Origin: an uncultured Erysipelotrichaceae bacterium
Lineage (GTDB): Bacteria; Bacillota_I; Bacilli_A; Erysipelotrichales; Erysipelotrichaceae
Direction: 5' to 3'
NCBI GenBank assembly: GCA_949744505.1
Contig: CATJXY010000052.1
Location: 1-64,000 of the forward strand
Length of the DNA stretch: 64,000 bases
The notes below the pieces were generated by a model, which was not told the DNA's origin, did not search any database, and saw nothing but the letters and a program-made list of their open reading frames with translations. This document shows, piece by piece, positions 1-37,172 of the stretch. Both the position numbers and the translations under genes were made by a program. Positions within the stretch are counted from its first letter, which is position 1. The number at the start of each line of letters is the position of its first letter.

Positions 1-350
1 AAAATAGCCTCTAATTCAAGCATAGTTAGAGGATCTTTCTTTCCTTTTAATCTCAATGTATAAGGATCAGATAATTCCGCATGTACTTTCCATGCTTCTT
101 CTTTTGAAAGATATCCAAAACGAACAAATAAATTTCTTGTTCTGCTTACTCTTGCTTTTCTTCTGCGTAAAACTCTTCTTGTTCCACGGGCAATCCTTCT
201 ATCTTCCATTGATTCCCCTTGTGGTTCAAAAATACGTGACCCCAAATCTAAGATTCGATAAGGTTCGTTATTTTCATCCACGAGCATACACGCCCATCCC
301 ACAGATCCAACTCCTGGATCTAAGCCTAGAATATACTTATTTTCTTCCAT
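1..350 (-). CDS. cas9: Cas9 (type II CRISPR endonuclease), N-terminal ~116 aa only, truncated by the left window edge
   Basis: Reverse complement from the ATG at 350..348 reads MEENKYILGLDPGVGSVGWACMLVDENNEPYRILDLGSRIFEPQGESMEDRRIARGTRRVLRRRKARVSRTRNLFVRFGYLSKEEAWKVHAELSDPYTLRLKGKKDPLTMLELEAI: RuvC-I motif (GLDPGVGSVGW) followed by an Arg-rich bridge helix. RBS AGGAGG is upstream. Absent from the ORF track because no stop lies in the window. Confidence 0.95.
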   Translation of the reverse strand, partial: MEENKYILGLDPGVGSVGWACMLVDENNEPYRILDLGSRIFEPQGESMEDRRIARGTRRVLRRRKARVSRTRNLFVRFGYLSKEEAWKVHAELSDPYTLRLKGKKDPLTMLELEAI

Positions 351-367
351 AAATGTTCCTCCTACCT

Positions 368-506
368 ATAAAAAGAGCATGGCCCAATCATAACGAGTAT
401 GTTGGGCCAAAGCTCTGCAGTCTACCTTACGGTAGGACTCTGATAAAGAGTCTTGCAAAATTGAATTGTGCTTACAAAGAATTGGTGCTTAAGCAACTCT
501 TTGTAA
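368..506 (-). ncRNA. Candidate tracrRNA, immediately upstream of and co-oriented with cas9
   Basis: Minus strand: TTGACA -35 (534-539), 16-nt spacer, TAAAAA -10 (512-517); then a 13-bp hairpin (472-484/494-506), a GACTCT/AGAGTC hairpin (436-452), a CTACC/GGTAG hairpin (422-435), and a strong terminator hairpin (374-416) followed by TTTTTAT. Size and architecture fit tracrRNA, but the cognate repeat is not in the window. Confidence 0.62.
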
Positions 507-511
507 TTAAA

Positions 512-539
512 TTTTTACACATTTCAAAATGATTGTCAA
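512..539 (-). promoter_or_regulatory. Predicted sigma-A promoter for the candidate tracrRNA
   Basis: TTGACA-N16-TAAAAA on the minus strand, with expected start near 505, at the edge of the first hairpin. Confidence 0.5.
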
Positions 540-626: not shown

Positions 627-1604
627 TCAATACTTTCCCAACAATTCCTTCACTTGTTTAATATAATCCTCTCTAAGTGATAGAGGATCTAATAATTCTA
701 TATTTCTTGCATATTGAAATGAAAATATCATAATTTCATTTTCAGTTGCAGTAATTCTAGCTAAAAACTTTTGGTTGATATCCGGCGATAAACTAACCGA
801 AGTTCCAAAAGTATCAATAACTTGATCTAAAATAGAATAATCACAGCGAAGTGTAGCTCGAATAAAAGTTCCACTAAACATATAAGGTCGATCTTGTGAA
901 TACTGTTCTAACATATCTCTTTCTTGTGATGTTAAAGGATTTACTCTTTTTTTAATTATTCTACAATTTCGTATCTTATCAATTCTATAATTACTAAATT
1001 CAAATTCACCTAAATGATTATCGCTTTTTGCCACAAGATATGATTTCTCATCTGAATATACAATTTTATATGGATGTAATCGATATTTTGTATCTCTTCT
1101 TTGAATTAAATTTTTATTCAAATCAAAATGCATATAATCAAATTCAATACAATTTTGTTGATATATTGCATTATTAATCATTTCAATTCTAAAAAAGAAT
1201 TCATTATCATGTAATTTATGATTATCTTTCCAATATAATTCCTTTTTCTTCTTATAATAATTCTCGCCTTGTGTCATCAAAAGTCTTTTAATTAAATCTT
1301 TGGTATGATTAGGTGAAACAGACTTCGATGCATGAATTGCATTAGCCAACAAGATAATCTCTGATTCCTCAAAAGTACGATTCATCAAATAATATCCTTG
1401 ATGATTATCTTGATAATTACTGATATCATAATCATAATTTCTAAGTGCTTCTAAATTGGCATAAACCGTTCTTCTTTCAATTTCAATATCATATTCATCT
1501 TTAAGGTATTTTTGAATCTGTGTCGCACTTAGAGGATGTTCTTCATCACTATATTTTTCTAATATTTTCAAGCATCCTAATAAACTCTTCTTTTTCTCTG
1601 CCAT
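627..1604 (-). CDS. HTH (HTH_11-like) + WYL-domain transcriptional regulator
   Basis: 325 aa; N-terminal wHTH (SATQIQKYLKDEYDIEIERRTVYANLEAL) and WYL-type region (YRLHPYKIVYSDEKSYLVAKSDN). Confidence 0.85.
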   Translation of the reverse strand: MAEKKKSLLGCLKILEKYSDEEHPLSATQIQKYLKDEYDIEIERRTVYANLEALRNYDYDISNYQDNHQGYYLMNRTFEESEIILLANAIHASKSVSPNHTKDLIKRLLMTQGENYYKKKKELYWKDNHKLHDNEFFFRIEMINNAIYQQNCIEFDYMHFDLNKNLIQRRDTKYRLHPYKIVYSDEKSYLVAKSDNHLGEFEFSNYRIDKIRNCRIIKKRVNPLTSQERDMLEQYSQDRPYMFSGTFIRATLRCDYSILDQVIDTFGTSVSLSPDINQKFLARITATENEIMIFSFQYARNIELLDPLSLREDYIKQVKELLGKY

Positions 1605-1927: not shown

Positions 1928-2353
1928 ATGATTCATGAAAATCTTTATACATTAAGAAAAATCAATAAATTAACACAAGAAGAAGTAGCCGAAAAAATAG
2001 GAGTCTCTCGTCAAGCCTTGGCTAAGTGGGAAAATGGAGAAACACTTCCCGATATAGAGAAATGTTCTGCTTTAGCAGATCTTTACAATGTATCTTTGGA
2101 TAATTTAGTTCATTATTCTCAAGAAAAAGAAAAATATCCTATTCCCCCAAAGGGAAAATATGTATTTGGATTAATTCAATTAAATGAAGATGGAACTATA
2201 AAAATTCCGGATCAAGCAAAAGAAATATTTCAACTACATGCAAAAGATCAACTCATCCTTTTAGGAGATGAAAAACAAGGACTAGCACTCATTAAAGAAG
2301 AATCTTTTTTAAATATGATCGAGCATATGAAACAGGGAGATTTTTATGAGTAA
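1928..2353 (+). CDS. XRE-family HTH regulator with C-terminal SpoVT/AbrB-like domain
   Basis: N-terminal LRKINKLTQEEVAEKIGVSRQALAKWENGETLPD is classic HTH_3; C-terminal NEDGTIKIPDQAKEIFQLHAKDQLILLGDEKQGLAL resembles an AbrB fold. Confidence 0.8.
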   Translation: MIHENLYTLRKINKLTQEEVAEKIGVSRQALAKWENGETLPDIEKCSALADLYNVSLDNLVHYSQEKEKYPIPPKGKYVFGLIQLNEDGTIKIPDQAKEIFQLHAKDQLILLGDEKQGLALIKEESFLNMIEHMKQGDFYE

Positions 2354-3514
2354 AATAGCTTTTTTCTGTATCCCTGCACATGGGCATACCAATCCAACAT
2401 TAGAAGTTGTTGAAGAATTAATTCGATACAATAATCAAGTTCGTTATTACTCTTATGATATTATGAAAGATAAAATAGCATCTACCGGTGCAGAATATAT
2501 TTCCTGTGACACATATGATTCACAAAAACAATTATCTGAAAAAGATATTGACCGTTTTGGAAAAGACATTGAATTTTCTATCAAAGTTTTAGTTGATACA
2601 ACGCTGAATCTAGACACATATTTATTACAAGATTTAAAAAATTGGAATCCGATTGTATTGTTGCAGATTCTATGGCTTTATGGGGTAAACTTTTAGCAAA
2701 GAAACTAAACATTCCTTTTATATCCTCTTGCACAACATTTGCCTTTAATCGATACTCTGCAAAAATTATGAAGCAAGATTTCAAAAAAATGATTCTTTCT
2801 CTTTGGCAAATGAATAAATGTAAAAAACACATTCAATTACTTCAAGATAAAGGATATCCAATAAAAAATGTTATGGATATCATTCAAAATGATAATGATA
2901 CAGATACAATTGTCTACACCTCACCATACTTTCAACCATGCAGTGAAACATTTAGTGATAAGTATTCATTTGTAGGTCCATCACTTAACCCACCGAGAAT
3001 TTCAAATTCTGAAAATTTATCTCAAGTCATTTATATCTCACTGGGAACTGTAAATAATCAAGTAACTTCTTTCTATAAAAATTGTATTGAAGCTTTTAAA
3101 AACACTTCATTTAAAGTTATTCTCTCTGTTGGAAAATTTCAAGATTTACACAGTCCTTATGAAAATATAGAAATTTATGAACATGTCAACCAACTTGAAA
3201 TTCTTCAGCATACTTCTGTCTTCATTACTCATTGTGGCATGAACAGTGTCAATGAAGCCTTGTTCTTTCATGTTCCCCTAATTCTTTTCCCGCAAACTGA
3301 TGAACAAAGCGGAGTAGCCTATCGAGTCAATGAATTAAAAGCCGGAACCTATTTAAAAGAAAATAAACCCAATATCATTTTTGAAACTGTTTTAGAAGTT
3401 CTAAATAATCCACAATATAAAGAAAATGCAAAAAAGATTGCAGAGAGCTTTTCACAATGTCAAGGAAGTAAACAAGCAGCTCAAAAAATCATACAAGTTA
3501 TCCATAACAAATAA
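2346..3514 (+). pseudogene. MGT-type GT1 glycosyltransferase, split by a -1 frame change near 2633-2645 (ORFs 2346..2696 and 2642..3514)
   Basis: ORF1 begins MSKIAFFCIPAHGHTNPTLEVVEELI; ORF2 carries HTSVFITHCGMNSVNEALFFHVPLILFPQTDEQ. The two join in the -1 frame at TTTAAAAAATTGG. Could be a frameshift mutation, a sequencing error, or programmed frameshifting. Confidence 0.75.
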
Positions 3515-3590: not shown

Positions 3591-6500
3591 TTATAAGTTT
3601 TCTTTTGCTTTTGCAAGCATCAACTTAATGCGATTGATTTGGTTGACTTCACTGGCTCCCGGATCATAATCAATGGCCACAATATTTGAATTTGGATAAA
3701 CTCTTCCCATTTCCTTAATGACACCCTTACCTACTACATGGTTCGGCAAACAAGCAAACGGTTGGGCACATATAATATTTCCTACACCATTTTTATTTAA
3801 CTCAATCATTTCCGCTGTCAACAGCCATCCTTCTCCTGTTTGATTCCCCGTATCAATAATATCTGAAACTTCTTTCATCAGTTCATGAAGATTGCTTAAT
3901 GAATCAAATCTTTTACTATTTTTTAATGCTTCATTCATGACATTGCGATAACGATTAACGTATCCATCAAAAATCTTTTCAACCCATATGTTAAAAGAAG
4001 ATTTTCCGAATTTCTTTGCTTTGATCGTTCCGTTATAAACACAATACAAAGCAAAATCAAATAAATCCGGCATAACCGCTTCAGCACCTTCTGATTCCAA
4101 CAAATCAACGACATGGTTATTTGCGGAAGGCAAGAATTTCACCAATATTTCTCCGACAACCCCCACTCTTGGTTTCTTTTCATTCGTAATTTCAAGCTCA
4201 TCAAATGCATTTACAATTTCTTGTACATTCATTTTAAAATCTTTAAATTCCGCTTCCTTTAAACTATCCTTACATTTCTTAGAATAAAAATTATAAAGTT
4301 CATTTGCACTTCCTTTTTTCATTTCATAAGGACGAACACGGTATAAACAACGCATCAAAAGATCTCCATACAAAACTGCTTGCATAAGCCTTCTGATCAT
4401 AATTGGGGTATAACTGAATCCACTGTTTTTTTCGATCCCGCTGGTACTGATAGAAATAACCGGAATGTGACCCATTTGTGCTTTATCTAAAGCTCGTCTT
4501 ATAAACCCGATATAGTTTGTTGCACGGCATCCACCACCGGTCTGAGTAATAAACAATGCCGTCTTATTTAAATCATATTTTCCAGATTGAAGTGCTCGGA
4601 TCATCTGTCCAACTACAATCAAAGAAGGATAACAAGCATCATTGTTGACATACTTCAACCCTGTATCCACATCCTCTTTCGTTGCTTCAGGTAAAACAAC
4701 AACATGATATCCACAATCAAGAATTGCTTGCTCAACAAGATCAAAATGAATCGGAGACATATTCGGTGCAAGTATTGTATAGCCTTCCTTCATTTCTTTT
4801 GTAAATTCTACCCTTTCAAAAGCACTGCTTGTAGGATAGAGCTGTCGTTTCATTTCTTTTCTTTCATTTACTGCACTAATCAATGAACGAACACGAATTC
4901 GAGCTGCACCAAGATTACTAACTTCATCAATCTTAAGCGATGTATAGATTTTTCCGGATTTATTTAAAATATCTTTTACCTGATCTGTTGTTACTGCATC
5001 CAATCCACACCCAAATGAATTCAGTTGAATCAATTCCAAATGCTCGTTTCCCTTTACAACTTGGGCAGCTCGGTAAAGGCGTGAATGATACATCCACTGA
5101 TCCGAAACAAGTAACGGTCTCTCCACTGTTGCCAAATGAGAAATGGAATCTTCAGTCAATACCGCAAAACCATAAGATGTAATCATTTCCGGAATTCCAT
5201 GATTGATTTCCGGATCCAAGTGGTAAGGTCTTCCTGCCAAAACAATTCCGCTTTCTCCTGTTCTTTTTAAATACTCAAGTGTTTCTTCTCCTTTTTTACA
5301 GATTGCTTGACGTACTGCATCGGCTTCACAATAAGCAAGATCTAATGCTTGCTCAATTTCCTTTTTAGAAATATCAAATTCTTTTTTAAATACAGCATAT
5401 AACCTTTCTGCCAATTTCTTCTTATTATCTAATCCAATGAACGGATGGAAAAAACGAATATTTTCTTTTCGAATTTCCTCTACATTATTTTTGATATTCT
5501 CCGGATAAGAAGTAACAATAGGACAATTGTAGTGATTAAATGCATCTTTTGTTTCATTTTGTTCATAAGCAACGCATGGATAAAAAATTGTCTTAATTCC
5601 ATGATTAATCAGCCACTGAATATGTCCATGAACAAGTTTTGCCGGATAACATTCCGATTCACTCGGAATGGATTCAATCCCCAATTCATACATACTCCTT
5701 GATGAGAAAGGAGAAAGAGTAACACGAAACTTTAAAGCCGTTAAAAAAGTAAACCAAAACGGATAATTCTCATATTGATTTAAAACTCTCGGAATTCCAA
5801 TAACCCCTCTTTCAGCCAGTTCTTCATTTAGTGGGGTATAATTAAAAATTCTATCCAATTTATACTTATATAAATTAGGAAGATCTTGATGACTCAATTC
5901 TTTTCCCAATCCTCTTTCACAACGATTTCCACTGATAAACCGTTGTCCATTTGAAAATAAATTAACAGTTAAAAGACAATTATTAGTACATCGTCCACAA
6001 CGAGCCATGTTTGTTTTAATTGTCAAATTCTTACATTCTTCATAGGAAATTAAATCTGTACTCTGTCCATGATAATGTTTTTTTGCAATCAACGCAGCTC
6101 CAAATGCCCCCATTAATCCTGCCAATTCCGGTCGTATTGGTTGAATCCCGGAGATATTTTCAAATGCCCTTAAAATTGCATCATTTAAAAATGTTCCACC
6201 TTGTACAACAACTCGCTTTCCCAATTCTTTTGCATCTGCCAGCTTGATTACCTTAAATAAAGCATTCTTAATCACAGAATAAGATAATCCTGCTGAGATA
6301 TCGGCAACACTGGCCCCTTCTTTTTGTGCTTGCTTAACCTTTGAATTCATAAATACAGTACAACGACTTCCCAAATCAATTGGGTTTTGGGCAAATAAAG
6401 CTGCTTTTGCGAAATCTTGAACACTGTAATTCAATGACTTCGCAAATGTTTCAATAAAAGATCCACAACCGGATGAACAAGCTTCATTCAATAACACACT

Positions 6501-10523: not shown

Positions 10524-12049
10524 ATGTTATATATAAATAAACTTACAATATTAAAAAAACTAGATATGCGTGAACTTTTAAGAGACTGTACATTTTCTGT
10601 TCTTCCCCACCAAAAAATCGGAATTATCGGAGAAGAAGGCAATGGAAAAAGTACCTTACTAAAAGCAATCCTTGATCCAAAACTGATTGAAAATTATTGT
10701 AATGTTCAAGGATTTGTCCAACATGAAAATCTCGTATTGGGATATTTACCGCAAAGAATGCCGGAAATATGGAAAGATATTTCTGTTTGGGAGTATTTCT
10801 TTAAAAAAGATCCAAACTCGGATTGTGATTATCAAAACATTAACAATTGTTATTCTCTTTTATCGACATATCAATTGAATGAAGAGGATTTATATGATAA
10901 AAAGTGCGGAGAATGTTCAGGAGGAGAACAAGTTAAAATTCAATTAATCAAACTTCAAATGCAAAATCCGGATCTCTATCTTTTAGACGAACCTACAAAT
11001 GATTTAGATATTGATACCTTAACCTTTTTAGAAGAATTCATGTCCGATGAAATACAACCATTTTATTTATTTCTCATGATGAAACATTGCTGAGAAATGT
11101 TGCAACCGGAATTCTGCATTTAGAACAAATTCACCGCAAGACACAATCGCGATGGACTTTTGAAAATATTGAATATGATGAATATCTTGAAAAAAGAAAT
11201 TTACTGAAAAATCGCCAGAATCAAATTTCTGACAAACAACATGCAGAATACAGGGCAAAAATGGATCGTTATAATCGCCTCTATCAAAAAGTAAATCATG
11301 CTCTGAATACCGTATCAAGACAAGATCCTCATACCGGATACTTACTAAAAAAGAAAATGAAATCTGTGAAAGCTTTAGAAAAAAGAATGGATAAAGAACA
11401 AGAAGATTTGACCAAGCGATTTGATGGCGAAGAAGAAATTAACTTCTTCTTTCAAGATTTTAATATTCCATCATCAAAAAAAGTATTAGATTATCAAACA
11501 AACTCTCTCACAATAAATGGGAAAGAGTTATGTAAAAATATTGATCTACAAATTTATTCTAAACAAAAAGTCGCTATTGTCGGTAAAAACGGATGTGGTA
11601 AATCAACACTTCTCAAGTTAATCATCAATCAAATAGAAAGCCAAGAAAATGTTGGATATATGCCTCAAAACTATGAAGATTACTTAGATCCGAATAGTAC
11701 CGTATTGGACTTTTTATGTAAAGATAGAGATAAAGCAACTCAATCAATGTTACAAACATTTTTAGGTTCTTTAAAATTTACTGCGGATGAGATGAATCAG
11801 ACATGCAAAGAATGTTCGGAAGGCCAAAAAGCTAAACTTTATCTTATCAAACTTATGTTTGATAAAAAAACTTTCCTGATTTTAGATGAACCGACGAGAA
11901 ACCTTTCTCCGCTCACAAATCCCATCATCAGAAAAGCCCTTCATGATTATCCCGGAACGATTCTTTTCGTCAGCCATGATCGACTTCTCTTAGAAGAAGT
12001 TGCCACACAAATACTTGTCATGAATGAATCCGGACTTCATATTTTGTAA
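10524..12049 (+). pseudogene. ABC-F family ATPase (antibiotic-resistance/ribosome-protection type), split by a -1 frame change near 11060-11080 (ORFs 10524..11093 and 11087..12049)
   Basis: ORF1: Walker A GEEGNGKSTLLK, signature CSGGEQVKIQL, Walker B LYLLDEPTNDLD. ORF2: linker plus GKNGCGKSTLLK, CSEGQKAKLYL, FLILDEPTRNLS. The -1 frame across the junction reads ILFISHDETLLRNVATGILHLEQ, i.e. the expected H-loop. Confidence 0.85.
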
Positions 12050-30803: not shown

Positions 30804-33800
30804 TTATGCTTTGATTTCTTTACGCTTATTCAACAATACCATCATAATTGCAGAACCAAGCATCATCATCCACATATAGAAAGTAATAGAATTATCTCCT
30901 GTATTTGGACTATAATCAACTCTTACTTCTTCTTTAACTTCTTCTTCAGGTTTTGGTTCTTCATATTCTGAATAACTTGTACCATAACCCGGTTTGATTT
31001 CACCGTTAGGATAAACGCTGATTTCAGGTTTCCATCTGTCATCTACACCGTCGCCATCTTCATCAATTGGATCACGATAATCTGTTCCGGTTGGATCACC
31101 ATCACCTTTGTCAATATTTGTATCCGGCTTCCAAATACCGTCTTTATTTCCACCTTCCCCACTAGGTTTCCAATCTCCGGTATTGTCTGTATCAATGTTG
31201 ATATCCGGTTTTCCATCACCATCTGTATCAATGTTGATATCCGGTTTTCCATCACCATCTGTATCAATGTTGATATCAGGGATTCCATCACCATCTACAT
31301 CAATATTTGTAGGCAAAGTTTCACCAATTACGACTACAATTGTATGATTACCTGTAACATTTTCGAACTTGAATGACCCATCATTGCTGATTAAATCAGG
31401 TCTAGATTTACCATCAATAATAACATCTTTTACTTTATATTCATGTTCTTCATCTTTTGTCATACTCCATTCAACATTGTAATCTTTACCACTTAAAACT
31501 GTACCACTAGATGTGATTGTTCCCGCAGCACCTTTGATTTCTGTTGTAATGTTGAATTTTTCTGTACGGAATTCTTTATCTGTTGGAACTTCTTTATCAT
31601 TAGGTAATTTTTTCTGAACAAAAATTTCAACATTCATATCACTCGTGATATTTTCCAACTTATAATTGTTTCCGGTCACTTCAACTTCTTGACCATCAAC
31701 AGTTACTTTAACAATTTCGTAATTGCTAGGAATTCCACTCCAGCTTACAGTTGTTTCTTCGCCTTCTTTGAAGAGACCTTTTCCTTCAACTGTACCAGCT
31801 ACTGACTGATCTGGATTATTAATGTCTTTAATACTTCCTTTTACTTTAAATGTTGTTTCAGGAAGAGTATCAATTACCGGTTTACCTGTATCAGGATCGG
31901 TAACAGGATTACCATCCTCATCTTTCTTCTGATCAGCGAAATAAACTTCAATTTCATGATTCATAGAAATATTTTGAACAGCCATGTTGAAACCTGTTGT
32001 TGTCTTTGTATTAATCAAACTTTCTTCAACTGCATCTTCTGCATAAACTGTCAACAAGCCGAAGATATTTGCAGAAGCAACTTCTTCACTTGATTCAGAT
32101 TCAGTATTTTCTACTGAATTCTCTTCTGATACTTCAGGAAGAGTTTCTGTTACTTCCGGTTCTGTAGAAGATTCATCAGCTTCAGGTTCATCGCCTTGAA
32201 CTGGATCCTCATTTACTTCTTCAGATACTTGAGCATTGCTTTCTTCCGGAGTCATAGATTCTTCCGGTTGTGTTTCTTCTGAATCAACCGGTAATTCATT
32301 TACTTGAGAAGGATCTTCCTCTGTATTTTCAGAAGTTTCTGGTTCAACAACATCTTCTTGAATCAAAATTTCATCCAATCCATTTACTTCAAGTTCTTCA
32401 CCATCTACAACAATTTTAATGATATAACTATTCGCATTTGGAGTAGCTTCAATCTTTGTGTAGTATTGACCTTTATACAATGTCTTTGATGCAGAAGCAG
32501 TACCATTACCATATTTATAAATGTTAACATCATATAATACAGGTTTAACTTCTACGATAACATCTGTATCTTCTGTCAAACTTCCCAAATCAACAGAATT
32601 CAAATCTTTAACATCTACTTCATTACCATTGATTGTTACTTTTTCAACTTCATAGTATGTGTAGTCATCTGATGTTGGATCAGCGTCATTAGAATTAATA
32701 TCCCATTCAACTTCATAAGGAGTTTCAGACTTAATTACAGCACCACCTGTAATTGTTCCCGGACCGCCTACAATCTGAGTATTGACTTTAATAAATGAAT
32801 CCTCTGGATAATCCGGTTCAACAACATCATCATCCGGATTTTCCGGCTTTTCTGTGTAATAAATATCTACTACATGGTTACCTTTGATGTTATTTAAAAT
32901 TGTATATCCTTTTAATACATCGTCCACAGTTTTAGTTCTTGTTGTAACTTCTACACCATCAACTAAAATCTTATATGGAACATACTTATCATTTTCAGCA
33001 TCCCACTGTACTTCATATCTGCTTCCACGATCTACAACAGATGATGGACTAACTTTAATTGTACCATCTCCACCATAACGGTTGACAGTTACTGTGTAAT
33101 ATCCATCCGTTTGGTTACCACCGGCAGCAGGTAATTTTGAAACCTTAACGACAATCTTATGGTTAGATTGAACTCCAGTAAAGGCAATTTCAGCAGCGTC
33201 TAGATTTGCATACTGTTCACCATCTACTATGATTTCACTGACTTTGTAACCTTCACCGATTGTCCATGTAACTGTAACATCTTCGTTCTCATTTACTCTT
33301 GTTGTCGGTGTAATTGTGCAGCTTCCATCAGCACATCCCTCGATTGCTGTTTCTATTTGATAAACATTCGGAACATCTACAGGAGTATTTCCTGATGGAC
33401 CCTTTCCTTCTGCAAATTCAACATAAACTGTATGATTTTCATGTACATTTTCAAGTGTCAATCCATCTTTTCTCAACAAGTCATCACGAACAACACCATC
33501 TACCAAAACTCTGGATACATGATATCCTTCATTTGCTTTCCATGAAACATACGGAGAAGATCCTTCTTTTTGATTCAATGCACTTACGCCTGTACCGTTT
33601 CCTTTTGTGATAACTCGAACATTGAAGTATCTATCATAATATAATTTCAATGATAATACCGGGTTACCGGTTACTACACCTTCATAAACATTGTGAACGT
33701 TATTTTCATTAAACCAATATTTAACACCATTAACTGTAATCTCAGAGATTTTATCTCCTTCACTTACAGAAACTTTTTGTTCAGTTGATCCTTGGTTAGT

Positions 33801-36800
33801 CTTTGTGCTTGCAGCATCTTTTCTATAGATGTATTCACCTGCAGCATTCTTCTCACCAGAATTATAATAGTAATCTACGGTATATTTTGTATCATTTCGA
33901 GCTTCCCAAACAGCTTTGAAAGTACGATTTACTTTTTGAGTTCTAATTGTATTTTCTGCTTCTGCATAAGAAGTCTCAGTCATTTCTCCATTCTCATCCA
34001 ATAACTTCCATCCTTGGAAATCATATCCAGGTTTTACCGGTTCAGGTTCAGCTTGATATGCTTCCGGTGTTGCTTTTGAATATGCATGATCCTTAACGGT
34101 AGATCCTCCGTCGGAGTCAAAACTTACAACGAACTTATTTGGGTCTGTTTTCCATACAGCATAAACAGTTAAATCACTTGCAGGCATTGTTGCCGGAACA
34201 GTTACAATACCACTAATTCCCGCACCCAATACAAATGTATTATCTGTATTATTCATAGCATTCTTTGATGTAGACCAACCTTGGAAAATATATCCAGGCT
34301 TTGTCGGTACACCACGACCTGAAGTAGGAATTGCCTGTACTCCGCTGTCAGAACTAATATCAGATGCAAGCAAGTTTTGCTCATAAGGAACGTTTTCATA
34401 AGAACGAACATTTCCCAATGATCCGCCGTTTGCATCAAATCTCAATGTATACTTAGAAACTTCCCACTGAGCAACTAAATAATAGTAGTCGCTTTCAACA
34501 TAATCTTTACCAGCATTAGAAGAAGCTACAGTAACTTGTGTTGAAATAGCTTCAACATTTGCAGCATTACTGATAAATGCCGGATTTTCTGCATCCGCTT
34601 TCACATGAGATTTCAATAATTTCCATCCGGTAAATGTATATCCCAAACGAGTTGGTGTCACATGCTGATCATCAATTTTCTTAATTACAGAAGAACCACC
34701 AGGAACTTCAAAGCTTGTTCTACCATCAATAGTTCCACCATTTGCCAAATAAACAAGGACATTTTGGTCTCTTGAATAAGAAGGACGAATGATAATTTCA
34801 TGATTTTCATCCGGTTTTGGTGTTGTTCCAGGAGTTACATCTTCATCTCCATTATCTTTCCATCCACTGAAATACTCATCTTCGTCTCCAGAATCAGGTA
34901 CATCGTCCTCTTCCGGTAAAACGATAATCGGATTATCACCGATAACATAGTAATCTTCAATTGGATTTCCATCAGGATCCTCAACACGGACATGTACCGG
35001 TTGGAATACTGCTTCATTACCAATGTTTCCACATTCATCTTTTACCCATACAACGATTGGTTCTGTAGATTCAACTTCAATCGGGAATGAGTATTCATGA
35101 CTGATATTTTCAAGATAAATCCAGTCATCTTCTGTTGGCTTGTAATCTTTATTATTTGTAACACAATATGCTGCTACACCGGAACCACGTCCATCTTTAA
35201 TAAAGGTAATACCATCTTCATCAATTCCTTCACCAGTATCTGTTAAAGTAATCTTAGCTTGATTTCTTGAAGTATTTTCTCCTTTGATAAACGGATACTC
35301 ATTGTCTAAATAAGCTGTCAAATATGTCTGGAAAGTTTTTGATTCATTTCCATTTTGATCACGAACTGTTAATTCAAATACATAGGTTCCTGAAGTACTA
35401 TTTTTTGTGAATACATAATTCGGAATCTTATCCAATCCATCTACCCATCCGGTTCTTACCGCTACAGCACCTTTCGGATCATATACTGTATAATTATATT
35501 GCGAAATTTTTCCATCTGCTCCAGAAAGAAGACCGATAGAAGATTTATCATGAATATTAACGGCAACTTCACTATTTGTCAAAACAAGGTGTTGAAGGTG
35601 AATTGTCATTAACTGTGAATCATCTTCAAGATTTCTTACAAAGAAGTTTGCCAAAGGAAGGTCACTGGAAATATTCGCTTTCTGGAAGTGATTTTTCTCA
35701 AAGTAATTCTTTGAAATGAATTCAGCCATTTGTCCTACATAGTCATCTGTTGTTGCAATACAACCATTCGCAGAACCAAGACCTTGGTGAACAATGTTTC
35801 CATCAGCATCTGTTTTCAAAATCGGATTACCCAATTCATCTAACTTCAAAGACCCATCCGGATTCTTTTCGTATTCGGAATCAGTAACTACTTTTCCATC
35901 TTGAGCATTAGAAACATAGAACAATTCGTTTTCATTCATACGATTGATTCCATCAGCATAATCCTGCTTTCCTTCAGTAGGAATTCCCGGATTTCCGCTA
36001 TCTCCTGCCAAGTTAATGAAATACTTATATTCTGCTCCTTCATAATATTGAACATATTTCAAAGCATCAAACGCTGAAGCTTCATAAGTCATTTCCAAAT
36101 CAGTATAAATAATTGAAGAGAATCCGCTACAACCATGTGAAGAATATCCAACCCATGGTCCAAATCCATTTAAGGTATTTGCCGTAAACTGAGGAATCTC
36201 TAAATTACGAACTACATCAACCGGTGCAGAAAGATTTCCGCTCGCATCATAAGCTTGTTGCTGAATTGTTAAACTTTCTTTTTTCAATTCAACAGTAAGA
36301 CGAATTTTCTTAAGGCTTCCCAAAGAGAAACTTCCGCTCTTTATTGAAGTTCCTGCAAATGCATTTGTCAAAGAATCTGCTGCAATATTGTTAATTTTTC
36401 TGATTTCCCAAGCACCTGTTCCACTTGCTGCTGATCCTGCCGCAAAATAAAGCAAATATCCGGAAACCTTATCATCAGCTGCCGTCTCTGTTCCTTGATT
36501 TTCAACTCCGGCATTCATAAAGAATCCAAAACCTGTCAATGTATGCGTATTAATGACAGATGCATCAATATTGAAACTGAAAGTACGTGTACTTGAACTA
36601 GGAGCTGGATAAACCATGAAATCTGCATATGCCGGTTTTCCATATCCTGCAAAAGCCATATTGGTTGCACCATTTTCACTTTGATAAATACCAATATGTC
36701 TATTAAATTGAATACATGCACCATTTGTAAATTTGTTTGTTGTTTTATTGATATAACTTTGAATATCAGCACCTGCCGGTGCACCCATACTACCTGCATC

Positions 36801-37172
36801 AGCAATACGGACTGGTTGCATAGCTCTCTGATCAGCCGCAACTAAACTCTGATAGTGAGCATTACTATGATAGTGGTCATATACATGCCATCCATCCATA
36901 CTTGAAGCATCAATAGAAACCGCCGTACTAGTTATACGGAATGTCGACGGATCCATTCCTTGGTCAATTAACTTTTGCGTTAATTCCTGCTTGAAATCCA
37001 AGAACGTTCCCGGATAATCTGAAGGAACATTAACCGCAATATCAACTACCGGTGTCGGGTTAGTACCAACGTTAGCTGCAGCACGCACTTCTTGGGTACT
37101 GTCTTTTGTGCTCATGAAACAGCCCATGACCAACGCGATACATAACATGACATTTAAAACTTTACGTTTCAT
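30804..37172 (-). CDS. Large modular cell-surface protein with InlB-type (Listeria-Bacteroides) repeats, VDG-type repeat modules, Asp-rich DGDGKPDINIDT repeats and an SPNTG-type C-terminal anchor
   Basis: 2122 aa; N-terminal signal peptide; repeats such as YTLRFDANGGSLGNV and FVVSFDSDGGSTV; C-terminus YSPNTGDNSITFYMWMMMLGSAIMMVLLNKRKEIKA. Confidence 0.85.
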   Translation of the reverse strand: MKRKVLNVMLCIALVMGCFMSTKDSTQEVRAAANVGTNPTPVVDIAVNVPSDYPGTFLDFKQELTQKLIDQGMDPSTFRITSTAVSIDASSMDGWHVYDHYHSNAHYQSLVAADQRAMQPVRIADAGSMGAPAGADIQSYINKTTNKFTNGACIQFNRHIGIYQSENGATNMAFAGYGKPAYADFMVYPAPSSSTRTFSFNIDASVINTHTLTGFGFFMNAGVENQGTETAADDKVSGYLLYFAAGSAASGTGAWEIRKINNIAADSLTNAFAGTSIKSGSFSLGSLKKIRLTVELKKESLTIQQQAYDASGNLSAPVDVVRNLEIPQFTANTLNGFGPWVGYSSHGCSGFSSIIYTDLEMTYEASAFDALKYVQYYEGAEYKYFINLAGDSGNPGIPTEGKQDYADGINRMNENELFYVSNAQDGKVVTDSEYEKNPDGSLKLDELGNPILKTDADGNIVHQGLGSANGCIATTDDYVGQMAEFISKNYFEKNHFQKANISSDLPLANFFVRNLEDDSQLMTIHLQHLVLTNSEVAVNIHDKSSIGLLSGADGKISQYNYTVYDPKGAVAVRTGWVDGLDKIPNYVFTKNSTSGTYVFELTVRDQNGNESKTFQTYLTAYLDNEYPFIKGENTSRNQAKITLTDTGEGIDEDGITFIKDGRGSGVAAYCVTNNKDYKPTEDDWIYLENISHEYSFPIEVESTEPIVVWVKDECGNIGNEAVFQPVHVRVEDPDGNPIEDYYVIGDNPIIVLPEEDDVPDSGDEDEYFSGWKDNGDEDVTPGTTPKPDENHEIIIRPSYSRDQNVLVYLANGGTIDGRTSFEVPGGSSVIKKIDDQHVTPTRLGYTFTGWKLLKSHVKADAENPAFISNAANVEAISTQVTVASSNAGKDYVESDYYYLVAQWEVSKYTLRFDANGGSLGNVRSYENVPYEQNLLASDISSDSGVQAIPTSGRGVPTKPGYIFQGWSTSKNAMNNTDNTFVLGAGISGIVTVPATMPASDLTVYAVWKTDPNKFVVSFDSDGGSTVKDHAYSKATPEAYQAEPEPVKPGYDFQGWKLLDENGEMTETSYAEAENTIRTQKVNRTFKAVWEARNDTKYTVDYYYNSGEKNAAGEYIYRKDAASTKTNQGSTEQKVSVSEGDKISEITVNGVKYWFNENNVHNVYEGVVTGNPVLSLKLYYDRYFNVRVITKGNGTGVSALNQKEGSSPYVSWKANEGYHVSRVLVDGVVRDDLLRKDGLTLENVHENHTVYVEFAEGKGPSGNTPVDVPNVYQIETAIEGCADGSCTITPTTRVNENEDVTVTWTIGEGYKVSEIIVDGEQYANLDAAEIAFTGVQSNHKIVVKVSKLPAAGGNQTDGYYTVTVNRYGGDGTIKVSPSSVVDRGSRYEVQWDAENDKYVPYKILVDGVEVTTRTKTVDDVLKGYTILNNIKGNHVVDIYYTEKPENPDDDVVEPDYPEDSFIKVNTQIVGGPGTITGGAVIKSETPYEVEWDINSNDADPTSDDYTYYEVEKVTINGNEVDVKDLNSVDLGSLTEDTDVIVEVKPVLYDVNIYKYGNGTASASKTLYKGQYYTKIEATPNANSYIIKIVVDGEELEVNGLDEILIQEDVVEPETSENTEEDPSQVNELPVDSEETQPEESMTPEESNAQVSEEVNEDPVQGDEPEADESSTEPEVTETLPEVSEENSVENTESESSEEVASANIFGLLTVYAEDAVEESLINTKTTTGFNMAVQNISMNHEIEVYFADQKKDEDGNPVTDPDTGKPVIDTLPETTFKVKGSIKDINNPDQSVAGTVEGKGLFKEGEETTVSWSGIPSNYEIVKVTVDGQEVEVTGNNYKLENITSDMNVEIFVQKKLPNDKEVPTDKEFRTEKFNITTEIKGAAGTITSSGTVLSGKDYNVEWSMTKDEEHEYKVKDVIIDGKSRPDLISNDGSFKFENVTGNHTIVVVIGETLPTNIDVDGDGIPDINIDTDGDGKPDINIDTDGDGKPDINIDTDNTGDWKPSGEGGNKDGIWKPDTNIDKGDGDPTGTDYRDPIDEDGDGVDDRWKPEISVYPNGEIKPGYGTSYSEYEEPKPEEEVKEEVRVDYSPNTGDNSITFYMWMMMLGSAIMMVLLNKRKEIKA
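31186..31293. repeat. Three contiguous 36-bp tandem units encoding DGDG[K/I]PDINIDT-type repeats
   Basis: TCTGTATCAATGTTGATATCCGGTTTTCCATCACCA at 31186, 31222 and 31258, the third diverged. Confidence 0.9.

What the first reader, a model, noticed from the sequence alone, without database searches (positions are those of the whole stretch)
1..350. Hidden Cas9 gene cut by the left window edge
The ORF track lists only an antisense ORF (56..352 +), but the minus strand encodes a clear Cas9 N-terminus: RuvC-I (YILGLDPGVGSVGW) plus Arg-rich bridge helix (RRIARGTRRVLRRRKARVSRTRNLF). A type II CRISPR-Cas system therefore begins here and continues off the left edge. Motif identity is seen directly; subtype (II-A or II-C), activity and novelty cannot be judged from 116 aa.
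Basis: partly seen in the sequence, partly recalled or inferred. Interest (0 to 1): 0.85.

Follow-up and report, generated by a model that had tools for sequence, protein, structure and literature searches.

The report
Cas9 gene start with its tracrRNA
The window begins, at the true end of an assembled DNA piece, with the first 116 amino acids of an ordinary bacterial Cas9 gene and its previously unlisted guide-helper RNA (tracrRNA), a new but conventional type II CRISPR system, most likely II-A, from an Erysipelotrichaceae bacterium.

Summary
In detail: window 3-350 (-) encodes an intact Cas9 N-terminus (RuvC-I with the catalytic Asp, plus the Arg-rich bridge helix), above the NCBI Cas9 cut-off even as a fragment. 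The antisense ORF 56-352 (+) is spurious. Window base 1 is the end of contig C52, so the gene is cut by the assembly. No remainder of cas9, no cas1 and no matching array was found elsewhere in the 98%-complete draft genome. New here: a tracrRNA gene lies just upstream (370 to about 504, -), with a sigma-70-like promoter, anti-repeat, hairpins and U-tailed terminator. Its anti-repeat pairs with the CRISPR repeats of the two nearest relatives at -36 to -37 kcal/mol (shuffled about -7.5). A covariance model of it found a held-out fourth copy (E = 4e-16); among 273 family genomes, clear tracrRNA hits occur only in the four carrying this Cas9 clade. The three relatives (a Holdemania MAG, Dielma fastidiosa, one unnamed; 56-66% identical) have cas9-cas1-cas2-csn2-like-array operons, i.e. 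type II-A layout. Verdict: a real new member of a known kind, with a conventional mechanism (crRNA:tracrRNA-guided DNA cleavage). Whether this genome holds a complete, working system cannot be shown, because the contig stops.

The parts
3..350 (-). cas9, 5' end (116 codons, cut by the contig end); RuvC-I with catalytic Asp11 (GLDPGVGSVGW) and Arg-rich bridge helix
   Evidence: TIGR01865 100.4 bits vs cut-off 100; PADLOC Cas9 1.6e-24; PDB Cas9 2.2e-16; 66/63/56% identity to full-length Cas9 of G035/G294/G024
359..363 (-). Shine-Dalgarno-like GGAGG 8 bases before the cas9 ATG
   Evidence: read directly in the sequence
370..504 (-). predicted tracrRNA gene, about 135 nt, same direction as cas9
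   Evidence: fold -48.7 kcal/mol, z -7.2; covariance model match 370-474, 118 bits (model built partly from it; held-out G294 copy 4e-16)
474..504 (-). 5' hairpin of the tracrRNA (11-bp stem); different stem sequences but a hairpin at the same place in the relatives
443..475 (-). anti-repeat (GTAAGCACAATTCAATTTTGCAAGACTCTTTAT)
   Evidence: duplex with crRNA repeats of G035 -35.7 and G294 -37.2 kcal/mol; shuffled repeats -7.9 +/- 2.4 and -7.2 +/- 2.5
436..452 (-). GACTC-loop-GAGTC hairpin, invariant in relatives; its 5' half overlaps the anti-repeat, so it and the full repeat duplex exclude each other
422..435 (-). nexus-like hairpin CTACC-GTAA-GGTAG, three pairs changed on both sides between relatives
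370..408 (-). terminator: GGCCCAA...TTGGGCC hairpin with U tail
   Evidence: the simple terminator scan missed it
511..539 (-). sigma-70-like promoter of the tracrRNA: TTGACA - 17 - AAAAAT with TG before the -10
   Evidence: 10 of 12 matches (the number of such sites is near chance for the region, but the place fits and a TTGACT box is seen at this place in G035 and G024)

Best explanation
Window 3-539 (-) is the promoter-proximal end of a chromosomal type II CRISPR-Cas locus, most likely subtype II-A, of an Erysipelotrichaceae bacterium: a tracrRNA gene followed by cas9, with cas1, cas2, a csn2-like gene and the repeat-spacer array expected beyond the contig end. Most likely working: the tracrRNA anti-repeat pairs with the repeats of the array transcript (shown here by pairing energy with relatives' repeats), RNase III trims the duplex (inferred from known type II systems), Cas9 binds the crRNA:tracrRNA through its bridge helix and other domains and cuts matching foreign DNA with its RuvC and HNH sites (RuvC-I Asp and bridge helix seen here; HNH and RuvC-II/III only in relatives), and Cas1-Cas2-Csn2 add new spacers (inferred from relatives). 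The left part is missing because the assembly breaks there.
For: Cas9 N-terminus over the NCBI cut-off. tracrRNA: strong fold, anti-repeat matching relatives' repeats, held-out discovery in G294, and clear hits only in the four genomes of this Cas9 clade among 273 of the family. Relatives with complete cas9 (1196-1226 aa) - cas1 - cas2 - csn2-like - array operons and all catalytic motifs. An N-terminal tree places the fragment with G035 and G294 (98/94 support). The G035 contig breaks inside its own array and goes on in another contig, an example of how such loci break assemblies.
Against: No remaining cas9, cas1, HNH_4 or array-like match in a genome estimated 98% complete; a loss of the downstream genes cannot be excluded. 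The closest PDB chains to the fragment are II-C (Neisseria-type) Cas9s, so the subtype rests on relatives' gene content alone. The Csn2-like proteins hit only PADLOC Csn2 models and only in two of three relatives.
Confidence: 0.88

Rival explanations
1. The cas9 is a real remnant: the locus was truncated in this organism (deletion or insertion next to codon 116), leaving tracrRNA and a dead N-terminal stub.
For: No downstream cas9, cas1, HNH or array match in a 97.9%-complete draft.
Against: The frame is open to the very last base and still aligns with relatives there; the contig ends there, as in G035 whose locus also breaks across contigs; tracrRNA and promoter look intact; third-position changes dominate.
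Confidence: 0.08
2. The locus is a subtype II-C system (cas9-cas1-cas2 only), not II-A.
For: The best PDB matches of the fragment and of the full-length relative include II-C (Neisseria- and Geobacillus-type) Cas9.
Against: All three nearest relatives have a fourth gene of 302-318 aa between cas2 and the array, two of them matching PADLOC Csn2 (1e-13, 6e-16), the third aligning with them at 26%; the array is transcribed in the direction of the cas genes in the relatives, as in II-A (for the definition).
Confidence: 0.08
3. The fragment belongs to an IscB, a RuvC or another RuvC-bridge-helix protein rather than Cas9.
For: Pfam alone gives only a weak RRXRR (IscB-type) hit, 17.7 bits.
Against: Cas9 model 100.4 bits vs IscB 15.2 (cut-off 175) and RuvC 22.1 (cut-off 163); 66% identity to the start of a 1220-aa Cas9 with HNH and RuvC-III; matching tracrRNA.
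Confidence: 0.01

Closest known systems
Type II-A-like CRISPR-Cas of uncultured Holdemania sp. MAG (G035; L027/L052, CAJFOC010000001.1)
   Same: 66% identity over the Cas9 fragment; tracrRNA of the same build upstream of cas9 and in the same direction; its repeat pairs with the window's anti-repeat at -35.7 kcal/mol
   Different: 5' hairpin of the tracrRNA has a short loop and another stem; whole operon known; array of about 40 repeats
Type II-A-like CRISPR-Cas of Dielma fastidiosa JC13 (G024; L028/L053, NZ_HE578926.1)
   Same: 56% identity; same tracrRNA core CAAGACTCnTTATCAGAGTC; cas9-cas1-cas2-csn2-like-array
   Different: tracrRNA transcribed away from cas9; different repeat with a matching change in the anti-repeat; Csn2-like without Walker A
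Unnamed Erysipelotrichaceae-family genome G294 (L057)
   Same: 63% identity; tracrRNA with similar long 5' hairpin; csn2-like gene and array
   Different: a small zinc-ribbon ORF lies between tracrRNA and cas9
FrCas9 of Faecalibaculum rodentium (type II-A, Nat Commun 2022, PMC8931148)
   Same: type II-A system of the same bacterial family (own knowledge) with tracrRNA upstream of cas9 and cas1, cas2, csn2, array
   Different: its tracrRNA is transcribed opposite to the cas genes; not compared by sequence here
Neisseria meningitidis-type Cas9 (II-C), best PDB match of the fragment (8ja0, 6jdv)
   Same: RuvC-I and bridge helix
   Different: subtype II-C, no csn2; distant

Membership tests
Cas9 (type II effector) | RuvC-I with catalytic Asp and Arg-rich bridge helix at the N-terminus | tested here: met
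Cas9 (type II effector) | HNH, RuvC-II, RuvC-III and PAM-interacting domain in the same protein | not testable with these tools
   contig ends at codon 116; HNH, RuvC-II and RuvC-III motifs present in all three nearest relatives
Type II CRISPR-Cas | tracrRNA with anti-repeat complementary to the CRISPR repeat | tested here: met
   own repeat unknown, so complementarity shown with the repeats of the two nearest relatives
Type II CRISPR-Cas | repeat-spacer array | tested here: inconclusive
   none in the window, no repeat-like match in the own genome; present in the three relatives, and the locus is cut by the contig end
Type II CRISPR-Cas | cas1 and cas2 | tested here: inconclusive
   no Cas1 match in the own draft genome, cas2 not searched; both present next to cas9 in the relatives
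Subtype II-A | csn2 | tested here: inconclusive
   locus cut in own genome; csn2-like gene in all three relatives
IscB | match to IscB model over its cut-off | tested here: not met
   15.2 bits vs cut-off 175; relatives are 1196-1226 aa Cas9s

The most novel reading that the evidence does not exclude
The tracrRNAs of the window and of G294 carry a long 5' hairpin whose loop (CTTAAGCAC) repeats the start of the anti-repeat; it could serve as a toehold that first catches the 3' end of the crRNA repeat (GUGCUUAA) and then hands it to the true anti-repeat. Together with a Csn2-like protein that keeps intact Walker motifs in two relatives, the clade may be a slightly unusual II-A branch.
Probability: 0.08. 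Interest if true: 0.4.

Novelty: new member of a known kind. Interest (0 to 1): 0.2.

Why it matters
It adds one genus to a small, apparently unstudied clade of Erysipelotrichaceae Cas9 (about 1200 aa) and gives that clade its tracrRNA, with matching changes between anti-repeat and repeat; both are what one needs to build a guide RNA for testing such a Cas9. Otherwise it is conventional.

Tried and rejected
Looking for the missing half: Cas9 family model, HNH_4, full-length G035 Cas9, Cas1, repeat pattern and the contig-end DNA in the own genome, all without a second piece. Rfam gave no match, which says only that this tracrRNA is not covered. Natural long-form tracrRNA that would act as its own guide (known from Streptococcus; own knowledge): upstream sequence pairs with the anti-repeat only at z -2.0 in the window and not in the relatives, so not supported. 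Csn2-like fold prediction from two sequences gave pLDDT 42, useless, so no fold search was made. The G035 array against phage records and four of its spacers against viral contigs: no match, so no PAM could be guessed. Tracr core in viral contigs: none. Plasmids: only weak Pasteurella hits. First genome-contig scan with the single fragment found nothing; the alignment scan named Holdemania and Dielma. The full-length tree left the fragment out as too short, hence the N-terminal tree.

Full report
Check of the observation. The minus strand of window 3-350 is open from an ATG at 350 (with GGAGG 8 bases before it) to the first base of the source, and encodes 116 residues with RuvC-I (GLDPGVGSVGW, catalytic Asp11) and an Arg-rich bridge helix. 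The fragment alone passes the NCBI Cas9 cut-off (100.4 vs 100 bits; IscB 15.2 vs 175; RuvC 22.1 vs 163), hits five PADLOC Cas9 models and Cas9 chains in the PDB. The + strand ORF 56..352 is the antisense shadow. Pfam by itself gives only a weak RRXRR hit; the full-length relative too is recognised by Pfam only through HNH_4 and RuvC_III.

Where it ends. The window is bases 1-64000 of contig C52 (68,041 bases) of a draft genome of 70 contigs, 97.9% complete. So the gene is cut by the assembly. No second Cas9 piece was found with the family model or with the full-length protein of the nearest relative; there is no HNH_4 domain over the cut-off, no Cas1, no repeat-like sequence close to the anti-repeat other than the anti-repeat itself, and no second copy of the contig end. 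The nearest relative's own locus also breaks: its contig ends inside the first repeat and the array continues in another contig. The fragment still aligns with relatives at its end, so an assembly gap is more likely than a real truncation, but this is inference.

tracrRNA. Between cas9 and the upstream WYL-domain regulator gene (627-1604, -) lies a strongly folding minus-strand stretch (370-540: z -7.8). Trimmed to the predicted transcript (370-504) it folds at -48.7 kcal/mol, z -7.2, and the equivalents in Holdemania and Dielma fold as well (z -7.2 and -7.3). The order is: 5' hairpin, anti-repeat, GACTC/GAGTC hairpin, a second hairpin, ACTGCAGAG, a terminator hairpin and a T run. The second hairpin changes sequence on both sides in three of its four counted pairs, keeping pairing (only three sequences, so weak on its own). 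Upstream is TTGACA-17-AAAAAT with TG before the second box.

The functional test for a tracrRNA is complementarity to the CRISPR repeat. The own repeat is unknown, but the anti-repeat of the window pairs with the repeats of G035 and G294 at -35.7 and -37.2 kcal/mol, against -7.9 +/- 2.4 and -7.2 +/- 2.5 for shuffled repeats; in G035 and Dielma the anti-repeat fits its own repeat best, and the differing bases change together. A covariance model made from three sequences, not including G294, then found the G294 tracrRNA about 0.65 kb upstream of its cas9 at E = 4e-16. In 273 genomes of the family the four clear tracrRNA hits are exactly the four genomes that hold a close relative of this Cas9. 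The weaker hits in G035 and G294 are mostly their own arrays (the repeats resemble the complement of the anti-repeat); two others (G268, G276) are at E 0.03-0.08 and were not followed.

Relatives and subtype. Nearest Cas9s: G035 (uncultured Holdemania MAG, 66%), G294 (63%), G024 (Dielma fastidiosa JC13, 56%), then below 50%. In an N-terminal tree the fragment groups with G035 and G294 (98/94), and Dielma comes next (84/76). The three full-length proteins (1196-1226 aa) hold IH(V/I)E.ARE, (V/I)DHI.P and HHALDA motifs, and the Holdemania one RuvC_III and HNH_4 domains. Each is followed by cas1, cas2, a 302-318 aa gene and the array. The 302-318 aa protein matches PADLOC Csn2 in two of three (1e-13, 6e-16), and the three align with each other (26-34%). 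By the usual definition (csn2 present; PMC3936727) the relatives are II-A; for the window this is by homology only. The fragment and the G035 protein resemble II-C Cas9s in the PDB more than SpCas9, so sequence alone would not have given II-A.

Mechanism. Shown: Cas9 start, tracrRNA gene with fitting anti-repeat. Inferred from relatives and the known biology of type II systems: array transcription, RNase III trimming, RNA-guided cleavage by RuvC and HNH, spacer acquisition by Cas1-Cas2-Csn2. The GACTC/GAGTC hairpin of the free tracrRNA overlaps the last third of the anti-repeat, so it must open if the full repeat duplex forms.

Novelty. No paper in the held library mentions Dielma fastidiosa together with Cas9; the Cas9 catalogue of 2020 names neither Dielma nor Holdemania in its main text (supplements not read). 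FrCas9 from the same bacterial family (PMC8931148) shows that Erysipelotrichaceae II-A systems are known and used.

Noticed in passing
window 474-504 (-); L057 about 4063-4095 (+): The loop of the long 5' hairpin of the tracrRNA in the window and in G294 repeats the start of the anti-repeat (CTTAAGCAC); in G035 and Dielma the hairpin is short and lacks it.
   Followed up: partly
L027 9398-10354; L057 9745-10680; L028 4273-5181: The Csn2-like protein keeps Walker A (GPSSCGKST, GGTSSGKTT) and a Walker-B-like strand in two relatives but not in Dielma; known Csn2 proteins are described as lacking a working ATP site (own knowledge).
   Followed up: partly
L057 4299-4697 (+): A 133-aa zinc-ribbon (transposase-like) ORF lies between tracrRNA and cas9 in G294.
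   Followed up: no
window 2346-3514 (+): A UDP-glycosyltransferase gene is split into two overlapping frames near an A run at about 2636; a frameshift, slippage or sequence error.
   Followed up: no
window 10524-12049 (+): An ABC-F-like ATPase is split into two frames near 11090.
   Followed up: no
window 627-1604 (-): A WYL-domain regulator lies directly upstream of the tracrRNA and cas9 in the same direction; this neighbour is not shared by the three relatives.
   Followed up: partly
window 30804-37172 (-): A 2122-aa surface protein with Listeria-Bacteroides repeats and DxDxDG runs.
   Followed up: no
G276:C56:879-981 and G268:C29:53826-53916: Weak matches of the tracrRNA model (E 0.03 and 0.08) in genomes without a close Cas9 relative.
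   Followed up: no
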